Shown in pieces: positions 533 through 12,510 of a DNA stretch of 64,000 bases. Below the pieces are notes generated by a model. It did not search any database and was not told the DNA's origin. It worked only from the letters and a program-made list of their open reading frames with translations. The stretch's first letter is position 1; each line of letters begins with the position of its first letter. The stretch spans positions 1 through 64,000 of the forward strand of contig NZ_CP013650.1 in the NCBI RefSeq assembly GCF_001466725.1. Direction: 5' to 3'. The position numbers and the translations under genes are program-made. The DNA comes from Lacimicrobium alkaliphilum (GTDB lineage Bacteria; Pseudomonadota; Gammaproteobacteria; Enterobacterales; Alteromonadaceae).

Positions 533-3500
533 CTATCGCATCAGCGCTAACAGAGAAAACAGCACGCCACCGCCTGAACCGGAGCCCGGCGGTTCGCTGC
601 TGGTTGCTCTGACCGTTACCCTGGCGCTTTGTGGCGCACTGGCTAACTGGCCATCTGATGCGGTCACCGAAAATACCAGGCTGGCCCCTGAGGTGGTAGC
701 CGGTGCGGTAAAGCTCATTTGATTGCCATCGGCCGACATCGTTACCTCAGGGCCTTGTGTCTGCTCCCAGGACCAGGTCAGCGGGTCGTTTTCGATATCA
801 CTGCCCTGCGCGGTAAGGGTGACACTGGTGCCCGGATCCACTGTCTGCGCGGCAATGTCACTGACAATCGGCGCGTCATTCACTGCGGTGATAGAGAGTG
901 ACACGCTGGTGCTGGCAGATAACGCTCCGTTCTCGTCGGCAACCTGATATTCAAGCACATCGGTGCGTTGAAATTCGCAACTGGGGTGTACTGAATATTC
1001 CCGTCGACCACTGAGGCGTCACCCTGTTGGGGCGGGGTGACGATGGCAAGGGTCGAGCTATCGAGCGCCGGCATGGGTATTTTTATCAGGCGGCTGGCCT
1101 GCGTTACCTGCTTTGCAGCCCAAAGCTCAGCGCTGACTACCACATCACGGGGGGCATTATCGTTGTTCAGTACGTCAATCACCCTCACCTCGTCTTCGTC
1201 CAACGTAACAGCGTCTGGTTGGGTGTTGATACCGGCGTCTTCGAGGGCAATCTTATAATCAATATCTGCCATGCCTGTAGGCTGGGTGGTTAATGCGAGT
1301 GAGAAAGGGGTGCCGCTGATCGGTATCGGCAAGGATGTTTCAGTGACCGCATTAAGGTAGTTGACCCCCAGCGTTGCATCACTGTTCTCAGCACCAATGG
1401 TGGCATTAATGGGATCCACAACATGGAGGTAATTAAACAGGACTTCATCGCTGTTTTGTTTTATCACCACCTGAAAGGTATAGGGCTCCCGGCCTTCTTC
1501 GTCATAACCGAAGGGCGCAACCTGATTCCATTCTACCACCAGATAGCGTTCGCCCTGCCAGTCAACAGTATCAATATACAGGGCACCTTCTCCGTTATCA
1601 GAGGGGTCATTGGGGTCGCGCAGATCATAATCGGCCATAACGGCGCAATCACATTATTAAGGTTGTCTTCGCTGGGAAATTCCACCACCCGGTTGGCATC
1701 AAAGGGCCCCAGTTCTATCTGGCCTGCCACAATAAAGCCGTTACTGGATACGGTAACACCCGGGTACTGCTCGCCATGATAAGTAAAGGGGAAGTCCACC
1801 CGGGTTGAAAAACGCGTGCATCCGTCCTGGCAAAGTACCGGCTGCACGCCTGTGGATTTTAAGGTGGGGGCATTCCAGGGCGTGGTTGCCTGCAGCGACA
1901 TGCTGCCGGCACTGAGCGCCCCTTGCCAGTGCAGTTTACCCTCATCGCCGATGGCCAGCTGATAAGTCTGACCATTGGACACCTCAGCCTGAATGCTGCC
2001 GGGTATGATGGTGGCAAAATCCGGCACGCTGATACTCAGCGACGGGTCCTGTACAAAATCAATGTTTCTGACCCGGGTTGTGGCACTTAGATCGCCACTT
2101 TGTGCCACTGACAGGTTAGAACTTAAGGCCCGGGTGTCACTGTTATCATTGGCAAAAACTGCAATGGGAAGCTGCTGAGTAGGGCTGTTGCCCTGGCGAA
2201 ATCCGACCCTTCCGAACACCCACTTGCCGTTTTCCACATCCGATGTGTCGATGCTGAAGGCCAGATTGGCAGCGGCACCCGGCGTATTCGCCCCGGTCAG
2301 TGCCAGGCTTTGCTGTTGCAGGGTTAAGCTGGCCTGAGGGTCATCCAGCTGAATATCCACCGTCCAGTTTTGTGCGATGTCGCTGACGTTAGTGACCACA
2401 TTGGTAAAGCTGCAGGATCCTACACAAGCGCCGTGGGCATAAGAGCCTGAGTCAAAGGTGAGTGCTGCGTTCATCGCAGCCGGAATATCAAGCATGCCAG
2501 CGCCTTGCTCAAAGGGTGAAGCGGCTTTTTGATTGACTTTAACCTCTGCCTTGGCGGTGGATATCAGCGCGGTTTTGATTTGTTTGCTGCTCCAGTCAGG
2601 GTGGGCCTGTCGCATCAGTGCCGCTGCGCCCGCCACCATGGGAGACGACATGCTGGTGCCGCTAATCAGTGCGAATGCGGGGGCATCATCCTGAAGGGAG
2701 GGCGAAGGCAGCGAACCCATAGGAAAGCCAACATCAGGCTCCGGCGCCGCAGCAGAGAGAATATCTGTGCCCGGCGCGGTGATATCCGGCTTAAGCACAT
2801 TGGGGTTAAGGTTGGGGCCAACGGAACTGCTCGGGTTTAACTGGTTATACAGGGCCTGATTAAGCAGTGCCTCACGGGTGCCCGAAATCAGTATCTGGTT
2901 GTTCTGAGTGAGGGCTTTTTGCCTTAGCATGCGCCCGTCTGCGCGGGTCAGCCCCAGCAGCGGCAGAGAAAATTCACCAGAGAACTGATTAAAGGGTCTC
3001 AGCGTTTCAAAGTCAGACACATTGTCCTGATACACCAGCACGGCGCTGCCGCCGGCCTCTGCGACATTGCTGACAATAGTGTCCAGCGGGCAGGCGTTAG
3101 TGTAATCCACCAGTACCGCCATACCCGATAATGTTTCTTCGCCTGCTGCTGAACAGCCGTCTGCGGGTTCGCCACTGCCGTTAGTCATCAGGCTCAGGGG
3201 CAACTGCATATCGTCAAATGACAGCAGGGTGTCACCGGAGTATGCCGGAAACTCGGTATCGTCAATCTTCAGCTTATGGCCGAATATTCTGCCAACGGTG
3301 CTGTTCGCCACGGTAATGCCGGACTCAATACAACCGGGGCAATTGATCGCATTATCGCTCAAAGAGCCATTGTTACCGGCGGAATTGACGATCACTACAC
3401 CCATTTGTTCCGCCGTGCTGAACACTTGTGTATAAACCGATTCTTCCGGGCTTTCGTCCTGAATCGAACCCCAGGAGTTATTAATGACATCAGCGCCGTC

Positions 3501-4400
3501 TTTTACCGCATGCTCCAGCGCTGCAAGCAACATGGCATCTGAGCCGGTAACGATACCGCCATTATCAAACAGCGCTTTGTAGACCATCAGATACGCGCCG
3601 GGCGCAACACCTGACAGGTTTACATCAACCCCTTCGAATGTCACCTCAATCGGGTTGCCTGCGGCGATACCGGCCACATGGGTGCCATGCCGGTTGGTAT
3701 CCAGGGGGGACACATCGGTAGCAGAATCGAACGCAAAGTTGTCATCTTCGGGCTTAAAGACCCTGGCGATGATCACCTTGTTATTGCAAAAATCCGGGTC
3801 GCCACCTTCCATACGGCAATAATCGGGGTTCTGACTCAGCCAGCTATTGCCGGACAGATCCGGGGCTTCAAACCCCGTATCATCAAACATCGGATTGCCA
3901 GGCTGGATGCCCGAATCAATAATGGCGATTTTAATGCCCTTGCCGGCTTCATGTTGACCACCCAACTGTGACCAGGCTTCGATGCTTTTGATCGCCTGAT
4001 GGCTGGTATCCAGATGGGCATAGCGCATTTTAACCGGATACACTCGCTTAACGCCGGGCAGCGCCAATACCCTGTCCAGTTCGCTTTCATCGAGTGACAC
4101 TTCCAACCCGTTAAGCAAGGTATCAAAGCGACGTTTGACAGAAATCGTTGGGATGTGCTGTGTGATTTGCTCTGTAAACGCCCTCTGTTGCTGCTGCACC
4201 ATACTGCGATAGTGCTTTTGCGCCTTGCCGGCGGCCATGTTGTGTTTTGTAGTCTGTGCAACGGCAGCCGGTGGTTCAAGCTCGACAATATAGCGGCCCT
4301 GAATCACCTTTGCGCTGGCCCTGGCCATATCCATAAAGGCAAAACACATCAATAACGCGACACAAAAATAGGCTGACAACCGCACGGCAACCTTAGCCAT
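533..4400 (-). pseudogene. secreted subtilisin-like (S8) protease with PA and Ig-like domains, two apparent frameshifts
   Basis: The start was placed at the ATG at 4400, preceded by GGGAGAAG. Reading with the two missing bases restored gives about 1289 residues. Order: signal peptide (about 1-30), I9-type inhibitor propeptide with YIVELEPP, then the S8 catalytic domain with Asp in IAIIDSGIQ (about residue 162), His in NRHGTHVAG (about 238) and Ser in SGTSMSSP (about 590), with a PA domain inserted. A nidogen-like segment, tandem cadherin/PKD-like Ig domains and a short GlyGly-CTERM-like tail (GSGGG, hydrophobic run, final Arg) follow. Frame breaks lie near 1633-1636 (APLW then ADYDLRD) and near 966 (ANFN then the VLEYQVADENG frame). 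Each is repaired by adding one G/C base. Either a decaying gene or sequence error; the reading elsewhere is intact. Family assignment is firm; the pseudogene status is not. Confidence 0.8.
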
Positions 4401-4570
4401 GTTCTTCTCCCTTTGAGGTGACAGACGCAAAATTAATCAGATACTAATCAGAATTGCTGCACAAAAACTATACACTTGGTGAACAAGTGCTACAGGGTGT
4501 AACCGGCACAAAAGATTGGCTGGCGGAGCTGAATGTTTGTTGAAGTTATTGCTTTTATACCGGGGAGTTG

Positions 4571-5491: not shown

Positions 5492-5720
5492 ATTCTCATA
5501 ACGTCCATTTGTAAATCAGGTCAGCGACGATGCTACAACGATCCTTACTTTATCGTCCACTTTCCTCGCCTCTTCCAGAGATTTTCGCCATTTGCAGTAG
5601 AAATAACCAGTTTTTGAGCTTTTCACTAAATAGTAATAGTGGACGTATTCTTTAGTACTTCGATACGTCCACACACACCGCACAGCCATGGGCTGTATGA
5701 AAGTTAATTTGGAGAAGCAT

Positions 5721-6044
5721 ATGAAAACACAACACGTTACAGATGATTTTGAGTGTGTCCTTGAGGCGATTTTTAACAACTATATAGACCCAGGCCCTGC
5801 CATCAAAAAGCGCAGTAATGGCGCCATTTTTTTAGACATCACTGACACGAACATACTAGGGGAGCAGACCAAATTCCGCCTGGAGCAGGAGACAGCCAAT
5901 TCTGGCAAGGTGAGAATGTCATCGGTGTATGAGGGTGACCCAAGGATCTCTTACGAACTGAGTATTGATAACACCGGAAGAATCACTCCAATATCTGGAG
6001 ACTGGGCAGGACTTCTCGCAAGACTACAAATATATAATAGTTAA
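5721..6044 (+). CDS. hypothetical protein, 107 residues
   Basis: The chosen ATG at 5721 has GGAGAAG just upstream; an in-frame ATG at 5688 lacks a good site. The protein is soluble, without signal peptide, membrane span or cysteine pairs. Features: an N-terminal acidic helix, then a mixed segment with ISYELSIDNTGRITPISGDW near the end, suggestive of a small alpha/beta domain. Not recognised. It is divergent from the PutAbiC-like gene and shares its AT-rich composition, so the two may have arrived together. Confidence 0.5.
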   Translation: MKTQHVTDDFECVLEAIFNNYIDPGPAIKKRSNGAIFLDITDTNILGEQTKFRLEQETANSGKVRMSSVYEGDPRISYELSIDNTGRITPISGDWAGLLARLQIYNS

Positions 6045-6214: not shown

Positions 6215-6562
6215 TCAGCTGCAGTCGGTGCCGCAGGCGGCGTCCGTTTTGCCCAGACGGCTCAGGTCCGGTTGGCAATCGCCGGCGCAACATTCTTCGT
6301 AAAGAAAGGCCAGCAGGCTTTCCATTTGCTCGAAGGCCACTTTGCAATAAAGGGTACGGCCCTCCCGGGACTGGCTCATCAGCCCAACCTTCATCAGCTT
6401 GGCCAGGTGATGGGACAAGGTGGAGGCGGGGATATCCAGCTTATGCTGAATATCACCCACGCTCAGGCCGTTATGGCCGGCCCGCACCAGCAAACGAAAA
6501 ATACCCAGCCGGGTCGGGTGACCCAGCTCGGCCAGTTGGTTGGCGGCATATTCCAGTTGCAT
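6215..6562 (-). CDS. ArsR/SmtB-family metalloregulator
   Basis: About 115 residues from the ATG at 6562 (GAGGG six bases upstream); the longer reading from 6586 adds only eight residues. Winged helix: LGHPTRLGIFRLL, then the recognition region DIPASTLSHHLAKLMKVGLM, then the wing SREGRTLYCKV. The C-terminus carries Cys pairs in EECCAGDC and AACGTDC, candidate metalloid or metal ligands. The usual ArsR CVC motif in the alpha-3 helix is absent, so the C-terminal cysteines may be the sensor. Divergent from the permease/glutathione synthetase operon that it probably represses. Confidence 0.85.
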   Translation of the reverse strand: MQLEYAANQLAELGHPTRLGIFRLLVRAGHNGLSVGDIQHKLDIPASTLSHHLAKLMKVGLMSQSREGRTLYCKVAFEQMESLLAFLYEECCAGDCQPDLSRLGKTDAACGTDCS

Positions 6563-6610
6563 GGTAAACCCTCGGTAAATTTTCAATCATTCTATATTTC
6601 TGGAAGTGTA

Positions 6611-6647
6611 TTGACAATTCCACACATATCGAAATATTATAATTCGA
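6611..6647 (+). promoter_or_regulatory. promoter of the permease operon with ArsR-like operator over the -10 box
   Basis: TTGACA (6611-6616) and TATTAT (6635-6640) are separated by 18 bases. The -10 box sits inside the near-perfect dyad TCGAAATATTATAATTCGA (6629-6647), AT-rich like known ArsR-family operators, and flanked by CCACA/TGTGG arms further out. Repressor binding there would block the promoter. A second role in controlling the divergent arsR-type gene is likely but its own promoter is not obvious. Confidence 0.65.
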
Positions 6648-6730
6648 CAAATGTGGAAATAAATGTGGGCAGTAGGTGCCGGTTCGGCAAAGGTTTAATC
6701 ATTAATTCGATAATACTGGAAGGGTGGTTT

Positions 6731-7621
6731 ATGGCGATGTTTTATGAAGCAGTAAGGTTCTTTGTCACAACACTGGCGGAATTGCTGGTGCTGTTTGTTC
6801 TGATCAGCATGTTGGTCATCTGGCTGCAGCACAAGCTGCCAAGGGCCCGGGTCCAGGCGCTGTTGTCAGGCGGTAGTGGCTATTTCAGCGCGGCGGCAAT
6901 GGGTGCCATCACGCCGTTCTGCAGTTGTTCCACCTTGCCGATGATGGTGGGCCTGCTGCGTTCAAAGGCCGCTTTCGGGCCGGTTATGACATTCCTCTTT
7001 ACCTCTCCTTTGCTGAATCCGGTGTTGATGGTTCTGCTCTGGAGCCTGTTCAGCTTGCCGCTGATGCTGCTGTATATGAGCATGGTACTGCTGGTAGCCG
7101 TCAGCAGCGGCCTGCTTTTGCAGTACTTTGGCTTTGAACGCTTTGTGGTGTTGCCACAAGAAGCGGTGGGCTCTGTGGCCACCAGTCAGGTTAAGGGCGC
7201 TCCTTCGCTGGTGGGCCTGTTTAAACAGGCGGTTCGGGAGACGCGCAGTTTCCTGCCTTACCTGTTGCTGGGGGTACTGGCCGGTTCGCTGATCCACGGT
7301 TATGTGCCAGCCAGTCTGCTGGCCAGTGTTTCCAGCAACGGGCAATGGTGGTTGATCCCGCTCGCCGCGGCTGGTGGCATCCTGTTGTATATCCGCGCCA
7401 GCACTATGCTGCCGCTGGCTGCCAGCCTGGTGGCCAAAGGCGTGAGCCTGGGGCCGGTAATGGCGCTGACTATTGGCGGTGCCGGAGCCAGTCTGCCGGA
7501 AATGATCATGCTTAAACGCATCTTCCACTGGCCACTGATGCTGGCCTTTATCCTGGTGGTGCTGGGTATGGCCTGTGTGACCGGCTTCGGTATTCAGTTT
7601 CTGCTGGAGGGCCAGTCATGA
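6731..7621 (+). CDS. ArsP/YraQ-type permease (DUF318, PF03773)
   Basis: 296 residues from the ATG at 6731, preceded by GGAAGGGTGG; the longer open frame upstream is a shadow across the promoter. About eight membrane helices in two homologous halves. The first half contains the family signature TPFCSCSTLPMMVGLLR with its conserved CSC, and the second half holds ILLYIRASTMLPLAASLVAKG in place of the second CSC motif. Characterised ArsP members export trivalent organoarsenicals; others are uncharacterised. The arsR-type neighbour supports a metalloid or thiol-reactive substrate. The stop overlaps the next start (ATGA), so the two are coupled. Confidence 0.85.
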   Translation: MAMFYEAVRFFVTTLAELLVLFVLISMLVIWLQHKLPRARVQALLSGGSGYFSAAAMGAITPFCSCSTLPMMVGLLRSKAAFGPVMTFLFTSPLLNPVLMVLLWSLFSLPLMLLYMSMVLLVAVSSGLLLQYFGFERFVVLPQEAVGSVATSQVKGAPSLVGLFKQAVRETRSFLPYLLLGVLAGSLIHGYVPASLLASVSSNGQWWLIPLAAAGGILLYIRASTMLPLAASLVAKGVSLGPVMALTIGGAGASLPEMIMLKRIFHWPLMLAFILVVLGMACVTGFGIQFLLEGQS

Positions 7622-8976
7622 TAAATCATTTGCAAAGGGTCAATCCTGACTGGGATCAGGCAATGATAAAAGAGCGTGTTGGTATGCTCGACAGGGCCGG
7701 AAATTTTGCCCCGCTGCCGGTGAGTCTCAGCCCCTGGCGGCTCACTGCCAGTCAGTGGCAACAGGCTCAGGATAACAGTCGGTTACTGGGCAGACTGCTG
7801 AGCAGCATCAGCAACCAAGGCAACTGGCTGCTGGAAAACCTCAACCCACTGATCTCCGGCAACAGCCTGACCGGCATTCTGGCTAAACAGTTGTTGCAGC
7901 TGGATCCCGCACAGATCCGGGCGGTGGGCCTGCCGCTTATGCGCCATGATATGCTGCTGGATACCGCTGATAAGTGGCGCTGGGTGGAAAGTAACAGCAT
8001 TGCCGCCGGCATGGGGCCGTTAAGCGATAACTGGCAACAACTGCTCAAACAGCAACAGGCCCTCTGTTGTCAGGCGGATAATCCAGCCATTGTTCGCCAG
8101 TCGGCACTGCTTGCCGGTGCAGCCGTGGTCATGCGTCGTCGTTTCGATAATCAGGCACCCTTATTGCTGTTTGTGGTGGAGCAGCAGGAAGATAATCTGT
8201 TTGATCAGCAAATACTGGCTGAAGCTATCGAGATCCGTGGCGTAAGGGTGGCCCGGGTCTCATTGGCACAGCTGGCCGGGTTGCCGACGCGTGGCAGACG
8301 ACTCTATTGGCCTGGCGACAAGCCGGGGGCGGGTTCAGCGGTGGATCTTGTGTATTTTCGTACCGGTTACAATCGCCAGGATTACCAAAACGCAGAGCAA
8401 CTGGCCCTTCGCGCCACCCTGGAAACCCTGGATCTGGTGCTCTGCCCTAATATCGCCCTGCAACTGGCGGGCAGCAAGTGGGTGCAGGCAAGGATATATG
8501 AAACCCTGCAGGATCCCTGGACCGGAGCGCAATTTCAGCGAAACCTGAGCCTGAGTCTGGCTGATATGGCCGGATTGCATACTTTGCTGGTTCCGGCGCA
8601 CACACTGACAAATGCAGATAACAAGACAATCGGTGGCAGACTGAACCAGGGCTGGCTACTGAAAAGCGAACAGGAAGGTGGCGGTTCGGTGCTTAAAGGT
8701 CAGGATGCTATCGACAATCTGAAGCAGGGGATAGGTGCCGATACAGGCTGGATAGTAATGGCGCCTATCGACAGTCAAATCAGGCAGGCGAGGCTCACGT
8801 TGCTAAAAGCGGGGCAATGGCAGGAATGGGCCGGTAGCATCTCCGAGCTGGGAGTTTTTACTCTGGGGCATAGTCATCAGTATGGGGGCTACCTGCTGCG
8901 CAGCAAGCCCGCAGGGCAGTTAGAAGGGGGCGTGCACCGGGGTGGGGCAGTGCTGGATAGCCTTCAGGTATTTTAA
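7618..8976 (+). CDS. eukaryotic-type glutathione synthetase homologue
   Basis: 452 residues, close to the 474 of the human enzyme, which ligates gamma-glutamylcysteine and glycine with ATP. I see colinear matches to the eukaryotic family, unrelated in sequence to bacterial GshB: N-terminal LPVSLSPW, R109 in LMRHDML, E124 and N126 in VESNSIAAGMG (the metal-site EINTISASFGG region), VDLVYFRTGY (243-251), CPNIALQLAGSKWVQ (276-290), the glycine-rich lid EGGG (353-356), SISELGVF (407-414) and LLRSK (426-430), then GGV..GGAVLD at the end. The lid asparagines of GGGNN are replaced by SV. Coupled by ATGA overlap to the ArsP-like permease under ArsR control, so thiol supply for metalloid handling is the inferred role. 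It could act on a related peptide. Confidence 0.85.
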   Translation: MINHLQRVNPDWDQAMIKERVGMLDRAGNFAPLPVSLSPWRLTASQWQQAQDNSRLLGRLLSSISNQGNWLLENLNPLISGNSLTGILAKQLLQLDPAQIRAVGLPLMRHDMLLDTADKWRWVESNSIAAGMGPLSDNWQQLLKQQQALCCQADNPAIVRQSALLAGAAVVMRRRFDNQAPLLLFVVEQQEDNLFDQQILAEAIEIRGVRVARVSLAQLAGLPTRGRRLYWPGDKPGAGSAVDLVYFRTGYNRQDYQNAEQLALRATLETLDLVLCPNIALQLAGSKWVQARIYETLQDPWTGAQFQRNLSLSLADMAGLHTLLVPAHTLTNADNKTIGGRLNQGWLLKSEQEGGGSVLKGQDAIDNLKQGIGADTGWIVMAPIDSQIRQARLTLLKAGQWQEWAGSISELGVFTLGHSHQYGGYLLRSKPAGQLEGGVHRGGAVLDSLQVF

Positions 8977-11368: not shown

Positions 11369-11662
11369 TTAAAGCTCAAAAAAATGTCTCATTGGATCCA
11401 TCTGCTGGTGGAGTATCCTGATGACAAAAAAATCGTGCTCACGCCTCCGGTAGAAAATGGCGTGTCGTTGGTGATCGTGACGGCGAACCCCATCTGCGAT
11501 CTCTTGGCACTCATACCCCAATAGTGGAGAGTTGGACAGGAGACGAAAGGTGCTCTCCAGGTCGTCAGTGTAAGTATCGGCCTGGCGAGCACCAAAGTTA
11601 AGCAAGGTATATTCGTAGATGGCTCTGAAATCCTCTGCCGCAAGATTGGAAAGCTTATACAC
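11369..11662 (-). CDS. parE: ParE/RelE-superfamily toxin
   Basis: 97 residues. Typical ParE layout: MYKLSNLAAEDFRAIYEYTLLNFG at the N-terminus, the middle LLSNSPLLGYECQEI, and the strand motif HAIFYRRREHDFFVIRILHQQMDP. ParE toxins poison DNA gyrase. The start overlaps the end of the antitoxin gene by eight bases, the usual antitoxin-first coupled arrangement. The gene appears intact. Confidence 0.9.
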   Translation of the reverse strand: MYKLSNLAAEDFRAIYEYTLLNFGARQADTYTDDLESTFRLLSNSPLLGYECQEIADGVRRHDHQRHAIFYRRREHDFFVIRILHQQMDPMRHFFEL

Positions 11663-11897
11663 CGTATTTCTGTTTCACCTGAGCGGCAATGTCGCGTAGA
11701 GACAAGTCACTTTCCCCGCTTCGTTCCCCTGCTTCTACAGCACTTCTGAGTGCTGCCGTTTGATTTTCCTGACGTTCGAGCAACCGCAAGGCTGAACGCA
11801 CGACTTCGCTGGTTGAGCCGTAGCGTCCGGACTCAATCAATCTCCCCACAAAGTCATCTAGTTCTGAACCGATAGTGACACTCGTTGTTCTGGGCAT
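11655..11897 (-). CDS. parD: ParD-type ribbon-helix-helix antitoxin
   Basis: 80 residues. The ribbon-helix-helix is at the N-terminus: TTSVTIGSELDDFVGRLIESGRYGSTSEVVRSALRLLE. The C-terminal tail would wrap the toxin. It neutralises ParE and is expected to repress its own promoter, where a dyad lies 13 bases upstream. Chromosomal ParDE pairs of this kind are often found in mobile or integron-like contexts, but no such element is visible here. Confidence 0.9.
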   Translation of the reverse strand: MPRTTSVTIGSELDDFVGRLIESGRYGSTSEVVRSALRLLERQENQTAALRSAVEAGERSGESDLSLRDIAAQVKQKYGV

Positions 11898-12090: not shown

Positions 12091-12510
12091 TTAACGGGCA
12101 GACGCAGCACGGCCGGGCTCATGGCCATCATAGCGGGGCAGAGCTGCATCAGGATCATCCCAGTTAGCTTTTGATGACACGAAATTATGCGATATGGGTC
12201 GTTCCAGAATGTCAGAGTCTAGAATACCCAGGCGCAAGCGAAGGCGATCCGGTGATTGCTCATTGCTGCTGAAAACCGGGGAGGCACAGACTTTACAGAA
12301 ATGACGTTTTTTGCCCGGTGCGGTCTCATAAAACGTCATGTTTTCATTCCCTGTTTTTATCAGAAGATCCCTGGTGGCGATAAAACCATTTGTGGCATAT
12401 GCGGTTCCGCTGTTTTTTCTGCACTTAGAACAGTGGCAATGAATGATTGATTCAATACCGCCATGTATTTCCAATGTTACAGCGCCACATAGACAACTAC
12501 CCTGATACAT
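12091..12510 (-). CDS. GFA/CENP-V domain protein (glutathione-dependent formaldehyde-activating-like)
   Basis: 139 residues. The zinc-ligand cysteines of the GFA fold are all present: CLCGAVTLE near the N-terminus, CHCSKCRKNSG at about 25-35, and FCKVCASPVFSS at about 71-82. Family members bind zinc and have been linked to S-hydroxymethylglutathione formation, though most are uncharacterised. It stands alone, so no pathway can be inferred. A TCAGAGACGTTGA motif copy lies about 60 bases downstream, near 12002-12024. Confidence 0.85.
   Translation of the reverse strand: MYQGSCLCGAVTLEIHGGIESIIHCHCSKCRKNSGTAYATNGFIATRDLLIKTGNENMTFYETAPGKKRHFCKVCASPVFSSNEQSPDRLRLRLGILDSDILERPISHNFVSSKANWDDPDAALPRYDGHEPGRAASAR

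What the first reader, a model, noticed from the sequence alone, without database searches (positions are those of the whole stretch)
6215..8976. ArsR-controlled operon joining an ArsP-type permease to a eukaryotic-type glutathione synthetase
The third gene aligns by eye along its whole length with eukaryotic glutathione synthetase (R109, E124/N126, VYFRTGY, EGGG lid, ISELGVF, LLRSK), a family unrelated to bacterial GshB, and its start overlaps the stop of a permease of the organoarsenical exporter family behind an ArsR-type regulator with C-terminal cysteines. A dedicated thiol-making enzyme fused by translation to a metalloid-type permease suggests export or handling of a glutathione or glutathione-like conjugate. 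I know of no described system with this exact composition, though absence from the literature cannot be checked here.
Basis: partly seen in the sequence, partly recalled or inferred. Interest (0 to 1): 0.82.

Follow-up and report, generated by a model that had tools for sequence, protein, structure and literature searches.

The report
Arsenic-switched glutathione-like ligase with exporter
Next to an arsenic sensor and an arsenic-type export pump, this bacterium carries a second, animal-and-plant-type glutathione-making enzyme whose amino-acid pocket is altered; related sets are switched together in other bacteria and occur on plasmids, which points to an unstudied thiol step in arsenic resistance.

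Summary
Confirmed and extended. Window 7618-8976 (+) encodes a full-length eukaryotic-type glutathione synthetase (GSS) overlapping an ArsP_1 permease (6731-7621, +). A divergent ArsR (6215-6562, -) faces them across a 168-bp gap with four copies of a 22-bp palindrome on back-to-back promoter-like sites. Among 20 named loci of the window's GSS clade, 17 have ArsP directly upstream and 20 have ArsR; 0 of 20 canonical gshB loci have ars genes. In some other genomes GSS, arsP and arsR are unlinked but share the operator. So GSS is an ArsR-regulon gene. It is not the housekeeping enzyme: 49 of 50 carriers have a strong GshB match. Gamma-Glu-Cys and ATP residues are kept; the Ala-Ala pair that sets the acceptor is changed, with His first in 76 of 79. 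Relatives also sit in SigZ-ABC exporter operons, most with a Glu-Cys ligase, and on 352 plasmid records. Most likely it makes a gamma-Glu-Cys-X thiol for arsenical export; the product is untested. Prior art: a 2019 figure legend names a glutathione synthetase in Shewanella/Aeromonas ars modules.

The parts
6215..6562 (-). arsR: ArsR/SmtB repressor, 115 aa, with C-terminal Cys pair (ECC) and three further C-terminal cysteines
   Evidence: PF12840/PF01022, NF033788 above cut-off; CC pair in 26 of 26 homologues printed
6563..6730 (.). 168-bp divergent promoter/operator region
6587..6608 (.). operator copy 1 (matrix 21.1 bits), on the arsR-side promoter-like site
   Evidence: matrix trained on clade-A promoters, this one included
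6615..6636 (.). operator copy 2 (23.8 bits), in the spacer of the permease-side promoter-like site
6640..6661 (.). operator copy 3 (29.0 bits), at the end of the -10
   Evidence: copies 2 and 3 together form inverted repeat I1
6703..6724 (.). operator copy 4 (20.9 bits), just before the permease ATG
6611..6640 (+). sigma-70-type promoter-like site TTGACA-18-TATTAT for permease-GSS
   Evidence: 11 of 12 matches; a consensus match only, 5 found in the region against 2.5 in shuffles
6589..6617 (-). sigma-70-type promoter-like site TTGTCA-17-TAGAAT for arsR
   Evidence: 10 of 12 matches; a consensus match only
6731..7621 (+). arsP-type permease, 296 aa, TPFCSCST motif
   Evidence: PF03773 136.8 bits; C(S/T)C motif with tPF, as PMC4435449 describes for ArsP cluster 2 (passages)
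7618..8976 (+). GSS: eukaryotic-type glutathione-synthetase-like ATP-grasp ligase, 452 aa; acceptor loop EGGVHRG
   Evidence: PF03917 + PF03199; model pLDDT 92.2; TM 0.84 to human GSS 2hgs; residues

Best explanation
A compact arsenical-resistance module. ArsR represses its own promoter and the permease-GSS promoter by binding several copies of one palindrome; a trivalent arsenical bound by its C-terminal cysteines releases it. ArsP and GSS are then made together. GSS uses ATP to join gamma-Glu-Cys (from the housekeeping GshA) to an amino-acid acceptor that is probably not glycine, giving a dedicated gamma-Glu-Cys-X thiol that binds the trivalent (probably methylated or other organic) arsenical. 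ArsP then exports the arsenical, as the thiol adduct or handed over by it. Shown here by sequence: gene order, operator-like sites and their conservation in cis and in trans, family, predicted fold, conservation of gamma-Glu-Cys/ATP residues, changed acceptor residues, coexistence with gshA/gshB. Inferred: that ArsR binds these sites, the inducer, the acceptor, the adduct and what is exported.
For: GSS is in the ArsR regulon: ArsR within 6 kb in 20 of 20 and ArsP within 300 bp in 17 of 20 named clade-A loci. 0 of 20 canonical gshB loci gave a hit to the ars queries of the panel. An operator matrix trained on clade A finds, in clade B (held out), sites within 700 bp upstream of GSS in 16 of 56 loci; nine of the 16 are loci with no ars gene found near. 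18 of 22 site spacings under 120 bp are 49-52 bp. 0 hits in 250 kb of gshB surroundings. The nine genomes each have a close ArsR on another contig, 8 of 9 with an operator hit beside it and 2 of 9 with ArsP beside it. A strict-pattern search of 14 genomes gave 11 sites: 4 at ArsP_1 genes, 3 at GSS, 1 at sigZ of an ABC-GSS operon, 3 elsewhere. Enzyme: R109, E191, N193, Q197, R248, Y251, R428 invariant in 38 sequences, H440 in at least 90%. The two acceptor residues mainly set beta-Ala over Gly in legume enzymes (PMC6315971, passage). Gamma-Glu-Cys as substrate is supported by a Glu-Cys-ligase gene in 7 of 10 ABC-GSS loci. Strong GshB in 49 of 50 carriers.
Against: No biochemistry. PMC5919673 (passages) reports nematode clade-2 synthetases that keep glycine preference although these two residues are not conserved, so the pocket argument is suggestive only. 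I found no substrate stated for tPF-type (cluster 2) ArsP in the passages read, and weak hits to Cu/Zn and SaoE models show the family is broad. ArsP exists without GSS in 3 of 15 close cases. 29 of 80 GSS loci have no ars, SigZ or ABC partner found, though nine of these keep the operator. In the 14-genome search the total was not above its reversed-pattern control (17 against 23 hits), and the GSS and sigZ sites were in part known beforehand; the ArsP sites are the new ones. No operator was found on the two Citrobacter plasmid stretches or in 9 of 10 ABC-GSS loci.
Confidence: 0.5

Rival explanations
1. GSS makes ordinary glutathione. It is an inducible booster of the GSH pool for arsenical binding and reduction; the altered loop still takes glycine.
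For: Fold and gamma-Glu-Cys/ATP residues as in true synthetases. PMC5919673 reports glycine preference despite changes at the same two positions (passages). Arsenite binds, weakly, to glutathione thiols (PMC6205960, passage).
Against: A conserved His at the acceptor position in 76 of 79 bacterial sequences, and His-Ser in 60 of 60 of clade B, looks selected rather than drifted. Score 123.6 against the 329.8 cut-off of the eukaryotic GSH synthase equivalog. A second gshB copy would serve as well (inference).
Confidence: 0.25
2. GSS acts on arsenate itself: running its acyl-phosphate chemistry with arsenate (arsenolysis) gives a labile acyl-arsenate that thiols reduce. This parallels the arsenate-preferring GAPDH recruited into ars operons.
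For: A reference title (Nemeti 2012, seen only in the reference list of PMC6953987; [quoted passage not shown] VarG GAPDH of Vibrio cholerae is such a recruited enzyme (PMC9601151, passages). GSS sits with GAPDH-ArsJ-like genes in Aeromonas and with ArsC in several loci.
Against: In the window and most clade-A loci the partner is ArsP, for which trivalent organoarsenicals are the reported substrates (PMC6205960, passages), with no arsenate gene adjoining. It does not explain the changed acceptor loop.
Confidence: 0.1
3. The module handles another soft metal(loid) (Sb, Se, Cu, Zn) and the ars names mislead.
For: The permease also hits Cu/Zn exporter (56.5 bits) and SaoE (76.6 bits) models, far below their cut-offs. 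ABC-GSS loci have no ars gene in the stretch read.
Against: 39 of 80 loci lie with ars genes, several with ArsC, ACR3, ArsA, ArsD or GAPDH-ArsJ-like genes. ArsR C-terminal CC pair as in AfArsR/SpArsR (PMC13236881, passages).
Confidence: 0.12
4. GSS attaches gamma-Glu-Cys to the amino group of an arsenic-containing amino acid such as arsinothricin, inactivating it.
For: The acceptor of this enzyme family is an amino acid; the basic His-Arg/Lys pair could bind an oxyanion side chain (inference). Arsinothricin is an amino-acid antibiotic made through an ars operon (PMC8552651, passages).
Against: No direct evidence. Clade B has His-Ser, not His-Arg.
Confidence: 0.03

Closest known systems
ArsR-ArsP organoarsenical efflux (Campylobacter jejuni ArsP; Shewanella putrefaciens SpArsR as a MAs(III) sensor)
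   Same: ArsR/SmtB repressor with C-terminal Cys pair, and a PF03773 permease with the C(S/T)C motif.
   Different: Adds a glutathione-synthetase-like enzyme in the operon; the permease is of the tPF (cluster 2) type of PMC4435449; which type the C. jejuni ArsP is, I did not find.
ars/arr modules of Shewanella sp. O23S/ANA-3 and Aeromonas sp. O23A (PMC6429310, Figure 3 legend)
   Same: The legend names glutathione synthetase and permease genes in the arsenic region; the ANA-3 locus here (L064) has ArsR, ArsP and GSS in a row.
   Different: In the passages I saw there is no word on its regulation, specificity or role.
Homoglutathione synthetase of legumes (3kaj/3kal)
   Same: Same fold; specificity changed at the same two loop residues.
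   Different: Loop is Leu-Pro there, His-Arg/Lys/Ser here; no export partner known to me (recalled).
VarG GAPDH with ArsJ in ars operons (PMC9601151)
   Same: A duplicate of a housekeeping enzyme recruited into an ArsR-controlled export operon.
   Different: Glycolytic enzyme acting on arsenate; unrelated chemistry.
Nematode GSS-like effectors (PMC5919673)
   Same: Neofunctionalised members of the GSS family.
   Different: The two solved ones have all six glutamate-binding positions substituted; here five of those six were matched and are kept, and the acceptor side is changed.

Membership tests
Eukaryotic-type glutathione synthetase superfamily | Both Pfam domains PF03199 and PF03917 over gathering score | tested here: met
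   67.7 and 94 bits
Eukaryotic-type glutathione synthetase superfamily | Whole fold including ATP-grasp lid | tested here: met
   predicted model pLDDT 92.2; the first 31 PDB hits are GSS, homoGSS or GSS-like chains, TM to query up to 0.84
Eukaryotic-type glutathione synthetase superfamily | ATP/Mg and gamma-Glu-Cys residues | tested here: met
   R109, E124, N126, E191, N193, Q197, R248, Y251, K287, K349, EGGG, E410, R428, K430 invariant in 38; their roles are recalled from human GSS and PMC5919673, aligned; one of two Gln of the glutamate site not located
Glutathione synthase proper (TIGR01986 equivalog) | Score over curated cut-off | tested here: not met
   123.6 versus 329.8 bits
Glutathione synthase proper (TIGR01986 equivalog) | Ala-Ala in the acceptor loop (GGVAAG) | tested here: not met
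   GGVHRG in the window; His first in 76 of 79 relatives
Glutathione synthase proper (TIGR01986 equivalog) | gamma-Glu-Cys + Gly + ATP activity | not testable with these tools
   needs enzymology
Bacterial GshB | PF02955 match | tested here: not met
   none at this gene; the genome's gshB is at C1:3501463
ArsP permease | PF03773 over gathering score | tested here: met
   136.8 bits
ArsP permease | C(S/T)C motif (PMC4435449) | tested here: met
   TPFCSCST; 38 of 39 permeases of the cluster have TPFCSC
ArsP permease | Export of trivalent organoarsenicals | not testable with these tools
   needs transport assay
SaoE or SO_0444 Cu/Zn exporters | NCBIfam equivalog cut-off | tested here: not met
   76.6 of 325 and 56.5 of 300 bits
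ArsR/SmtB metalloregulator | NF033788 cut-off | tested here: met
   67.4 versus 55
ArsR/SmtB metalloregulator | AfArsR-type three-Cys As(III) site (C95, C96, C102) | tested here: inconclusive
   CC pair kept, third Cys at another spacing and variable; three Shewanella homologues (L044, L050, L064) have only the pair at the C-terminus (PMC13236881, passages)

The most novel reading that the evidence does not exclude
A previously unrecognised ars enzyme class: a bacterial glutathione-synthetase-like ligase that makes a non-glycine gamma-Glu-Cys-X thiol, used as a dedicated arsenical carrier and exported either by ArsP or, with its own gamma-Glu-Cys ligase and a SigZ-like factor, by a paired ABC exporter. 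It belongs to an ArsR regulon that is linked in some genomes, dispersed in others, and mobile on enterobacterial plasmids.
Probability: 0.35. Interest if true: 0.87.

Novelty: new variant of a known kind. Interest (0 to 1): 0.73.

Why it matters
It adds an enzyme to the ars repertoire that annotation hides under the name glutathione synthase, predicts a new low-molecular-weight thiol that one in vitro experiment can identify, and links thiol synthesis to arsenical export through one operator. A clade-B relative is matched on 352 of 72,556 plasmid records: 345 of them at 99% identity or more to the query copy (L185), 306 over at least 80% of the gene, 312 from Escherichia or Salmonella. In 4 of the 6 plasmids that I read, IS26 and antibiotic-resistance genes lie in the same stretch. 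Its function therefore bears on how arsenical exposure could co-select plasmids (inference).

Tried and rejected
Rejected: GSS as the genome's only synthetase (canonical gshB and gshA present). The permease as SaoE or a Cu/Zn exporter (cut-offs not met). Chance adjacency. A single operon transcribed with arsR (divergent). A solved relative of the permease (none by sequence).

Tried with little result: the class-wide survey found 2 of 369 genomes, one of them the window's own, so the gene is patchy. In the window's own genome the promoter pattern matched without mismatch only here; the other matches, at 3 mismatches, were at the level of the reversed-pattern control. In the 14-genome search the total (17 hits, 11 sites) was not above the reversed-pattern control (23 hits), whose places were not examined; the 14 were chosen as GSS carriers, so only the ArsP sites are new information. 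The matrix was built from TTC-N10-GAA words of clade-A promoters, window included, so the window's own scores are not independent. The tree is a quick one with long-branch warnings. Papers: ten searches were run. Those that bear on a GSS in ars operons are 9, 15, 16, 41 and 89. One search lists 25 of 53 papers; of the six listed that hold 'glutathione synth' I looked into three. Nothing nearer than PMC6429310 was seen; the library lacks most subscription journals. The phage collection was not searched, Vibrionaceae were not surveyed as a family, and only the best 80 of 193 relatives were kept.
Full report
OBSERVATION. The three genes are present. ArsR is 6215-6562 on the minus strand; the permease is 6731-7621 and the GSS 7618-8976 on the plus strand, with a 4-base overlap of stop and start. 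Pfam gives ArsR-type HTH, ArsP_1 (136.8 bits) and, for the third gene, PF03917 (94 bits) plus PF03199 (67.7 bits), over gathering scores. Sequence search of the PDB at E 0.001 finds six sequences, all eukaryotic GSS or homoglutathione synthetase, best potato 5oes at E 1.2e-31. An AlphaFold2 model from a 38-row alignment has mean pLDDT 92.2 and pTM 0.92; Foldseek ranks yeast, potato, human and soybean enzymes first, TM to human 2hgs 0.84. The tight permease-GSS join is general: in 14 of 17 named clade-A loci a GSS ATG lies from 4 bases inside to 10 bases after the ArsP stop.

NOT THE HOUSEKEEPING ENZYME. The same genome has a canonical gshB (PF02955, 250.6 bits at C1:3501463) and gshA (PF04262, 553.8 bits). 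It also has a second PF03773 permease, at C1:615740 (207.6 bits). Among 50 genomes that carry GSS (the window's and those of 49 of the 80 named loci), all match PF02955 and 49 do so at over 190 bits; the exception, G684, has weak and split matches, and in G708 the only strong match (195 bits) is a second GshB form.

CONSERVED NEIGHBOURHOOD. In 295 genomes of the window's family, 18, its own included, have a GSS relative. In the 12 with a close full-length copy (own included), ArsP and a divergent ArsR adjoin it. From the named collection, 193 relatives were found and the best 80 kept. A quick tree of 79 of them (truncated L042 left out) plus the window parts two clades at SH-aLRT 100: clade A, 20 rows with the window, and clade B, 60 rows; the program warns of long branches, L097 first. 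In clade A (20 named loci, L042 counted in), ArsR is within 6 kb in 20 of 20 and ArsP within 300 bp in 17 of 20, missing in L038, L042 and L097. Over all 80: 39 loci with ars genes, 10 with a paired ABC exporter just upstream, 2 with SigZ only, 29 with none of these, some on short contigs. Clade-B ars neighbours include ACR3, ArsC, ArsA, ArsD and an MFS protein of ArsJ type, with representatives checked by families, and a GAPDH known by eye. The same query panel around gshB in 20 genomes hit no ars gene, only ABC-ATPase cross-hits. The reverse view is less strict: of 15 family genomes with ArsP at 344 bits or more, 12 have GSS and 3 (G275, G184, G286) do not; in the two of those three that I read, a MerR-like gene (by eye) follows ArsP instead. 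Of 152 genomes of the Shewanella family 51 have a GSS.

OPERATOR AND REGULON. The 168-bp gap holds back-to-back promoter-like sites and four copies of a palindrome, consensus TATTTCGATAATTATCGAAATA; the matrix finds no other site in the 64-kb window at 10 bits. Built from clade-A promoters only, it was applied to clade B as held-out data: 27 of 60 loci have a hit of 14 bits or more, 16 of 56 within 700 bp upstream of the GSS match, and 18 of 22 neighbouring sites lie 49-52 bp apart. Nine of the 16 are loci with no ars gene found near (L043, L059, L068, L075, L077, L078, L079, L088, L092). 250 kb of gshB surroundings gave none. Those nine genomes each have a close ArsR (53-68% identity) on another contig; in 8 of 9 an operator hit lies beside it, and in 2 of 9 an ArsP. 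A strict pattern searched in 14 GSS-carrying genomes hit 9 of them, at 11 distinct sites: 4 at PF03773 permeases (L201, L202, L203, L213), 3 at GSS (L199, L200, L204), 1 before sigZ of an ABC-GSS operon (L206), and 3 elsewhere (L205, L207, L214). The total of 17 hits was not above the reversed-pattern control (23), and the GSS and sigZ sites were in part known; the new point is that the unlinked arsP genes carry the site. I conclude that arsR, arsP and GSS form one regulon whether linked or not; binding itself is untested.

ENZYME CHANGES. In 38 sequences the residues matching the gamma-Glu-Cys and ATP sites are invariant. PMC5919673 (section 8 read) lists R, E, two Q, N and Y for the glutamate part; I matched five, the second Q was not located. 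The two loop residues that PMC6315971 (passage) says mainly set beta-Ala over Gly are Ala-Ala in the human, yeast and potato glutathione synthetases and Leu-Pro in soybean homoglutathione synthetase. Here, of 79 readable named sequences, His is first in 76; the pair is His-Ser in 60 of 60 clade-B rows and His-Arg (10), His-Lys (3), His-Gly (2), His-Asn (1), Ser-His (2) or Ser-Tyr (1) in clade A. PMC3473041 (abstract and passages): in fission yeast, changing this pair gave use of Ser, and changing it with two further residues gave use of beta-Ala. Against over-reading: PMC5919673 reports glycine preference in nematode clade-2 enzymes despite such changes. So a non-glycine acceptor is likely but not shown.

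A SECOND EXPORT FORM. In 10 loci of Aliivibrio, Vibrio, Photobacterium, Shewanella and others two ABC exporters precede GSS; a SigZ-like gene is in 9 of the 10 and a Glu-Cys-ligase gene in 7 of 10, divergent in L062 and in pieces in L100 and L102. One or a few representatives of each were checked by families: ligase PF04262 467.9 bits, sigma factors best hit SigZ but under its cut-off, ABC best hit SmdA under its cut-off. All 10 genomes also have a full gshA of over 520 bits. This supports gamma-Glu-Cys as the substrate and export as the common theme. In two of three Aeromonas loci the SigZ-like gene lies between ArsC and GSS-ArsP, and in L086 an operator sits before sigZ; the other nine ABC loci have none.

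SPREAD ON PLASMIDS. A clade-B GSS is matched in 352 of 72,556 plasmid records, 306 over at least 80% of the gene, 345 at 99% identity or more: Escherichia 208, Salmonella 104, Klebsiella 20, Citrobacter 9, Shigella 5, Enterobacter 4, Raoultella 1, Pseudomonas 1; and in 174 of 5426 complete E. coli genomes, 194 of 199 places on plasmids. In pYD786-4 it lies beside ArsR and an ArsP_1 permease with two operator copies. In two Citrobacter plasmids it is divergent from an ArsR-like HTH gene with a CC pair and ArsC, without operator hits. In pGDE043-mcr1 ArsR-ArsP, with the operator, is about 2.6 kb off, past an IS26. In pNT1F34-tetX4 and pT-HNK130-3 no ArsR-ArsP is listed within the 8-9 kb read; that gene table is incomplete. 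Six plasmids were read of 352, so how many keep the whole set is not known; 24 records cover 80% or more of the GSS-ArsR-ArsP stretch, counted among the best 5000.

PRIOR ART. PMC6429310 (passages) names glutathione synthetase among coloured genes of Shewanella/Aeromonas ars/arr modules in a figure legend, the term's only occurrence. The searches listed under Tried and rejected showed nothing nearer. SpArsR as a two-cysteine MAs(III) sensor and AfArsR come from PMC13236881 (passages). ArsP as exporter of MAs(III) and trivalent roxarsone comes from PMC6205960 (passages). The C(S/T)C motif and the two ArsP clusters come from PMC4435449 (passages).

VERDICT. An ars-regulon variant with an enzyme whose role I found nowhere studied: regulon membership about 0.9, the full mechanism about 0.5, a new thiol about 0.35. 

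Noticed in passing
window 533-4430 (-): A subtilase (Peptidase_S8) gene ends at 1533 while apparent C-terminal parts continue in other frames (880-1638, no Pfam match; 533-958 with Ig-like domain Big_9), so the gene looks split near its 3' end.
   Followed up: no
window 11369-11897 (-): ParD/ParE type II toxin-antitoxin pair.
   Followed up: no
window 12091-12510 (-): GFA-family protein (annotated as glutathione-dependent formaldehyde-activating) 3 kb from the GSS; no link shown.
   Followed up: no
window 5688-6044 (+): 118-residue ORF with no Pfam or NCBIfam match next to arsR.
   Followed up: no
L073:1-7347 and similar (L087, L094): SigZ-like - Glu-Cys ligase - ABC - ABC - GSS operon in Vibrionaceae, possibly a thiol export system of its own.
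   Followed up: partly
L185:6626-7759 (+): The plasmid ArsP_1 permease carries a long loop with repeated CC pairs absent from the window's permease.
   Followed up: no
L185, L187, L189: GSS starts about 266 bases after an IS26 copy on these enterobacterial plasmids, with mph(A) or other resistance genes beyond it.
   Followed up: partly
L137 and L139: Genomes of the same family with ArsR-ArsP but a MerR-like regulator where GSS would be.
   Followed up: partly
G701, G703, G707, G681, G694, G708: A GshB-like protein in an open frame of about 344-357 aa scoring 194-199 bits, a second form beside a stronger GshB in all but G708.
   Followed up: no
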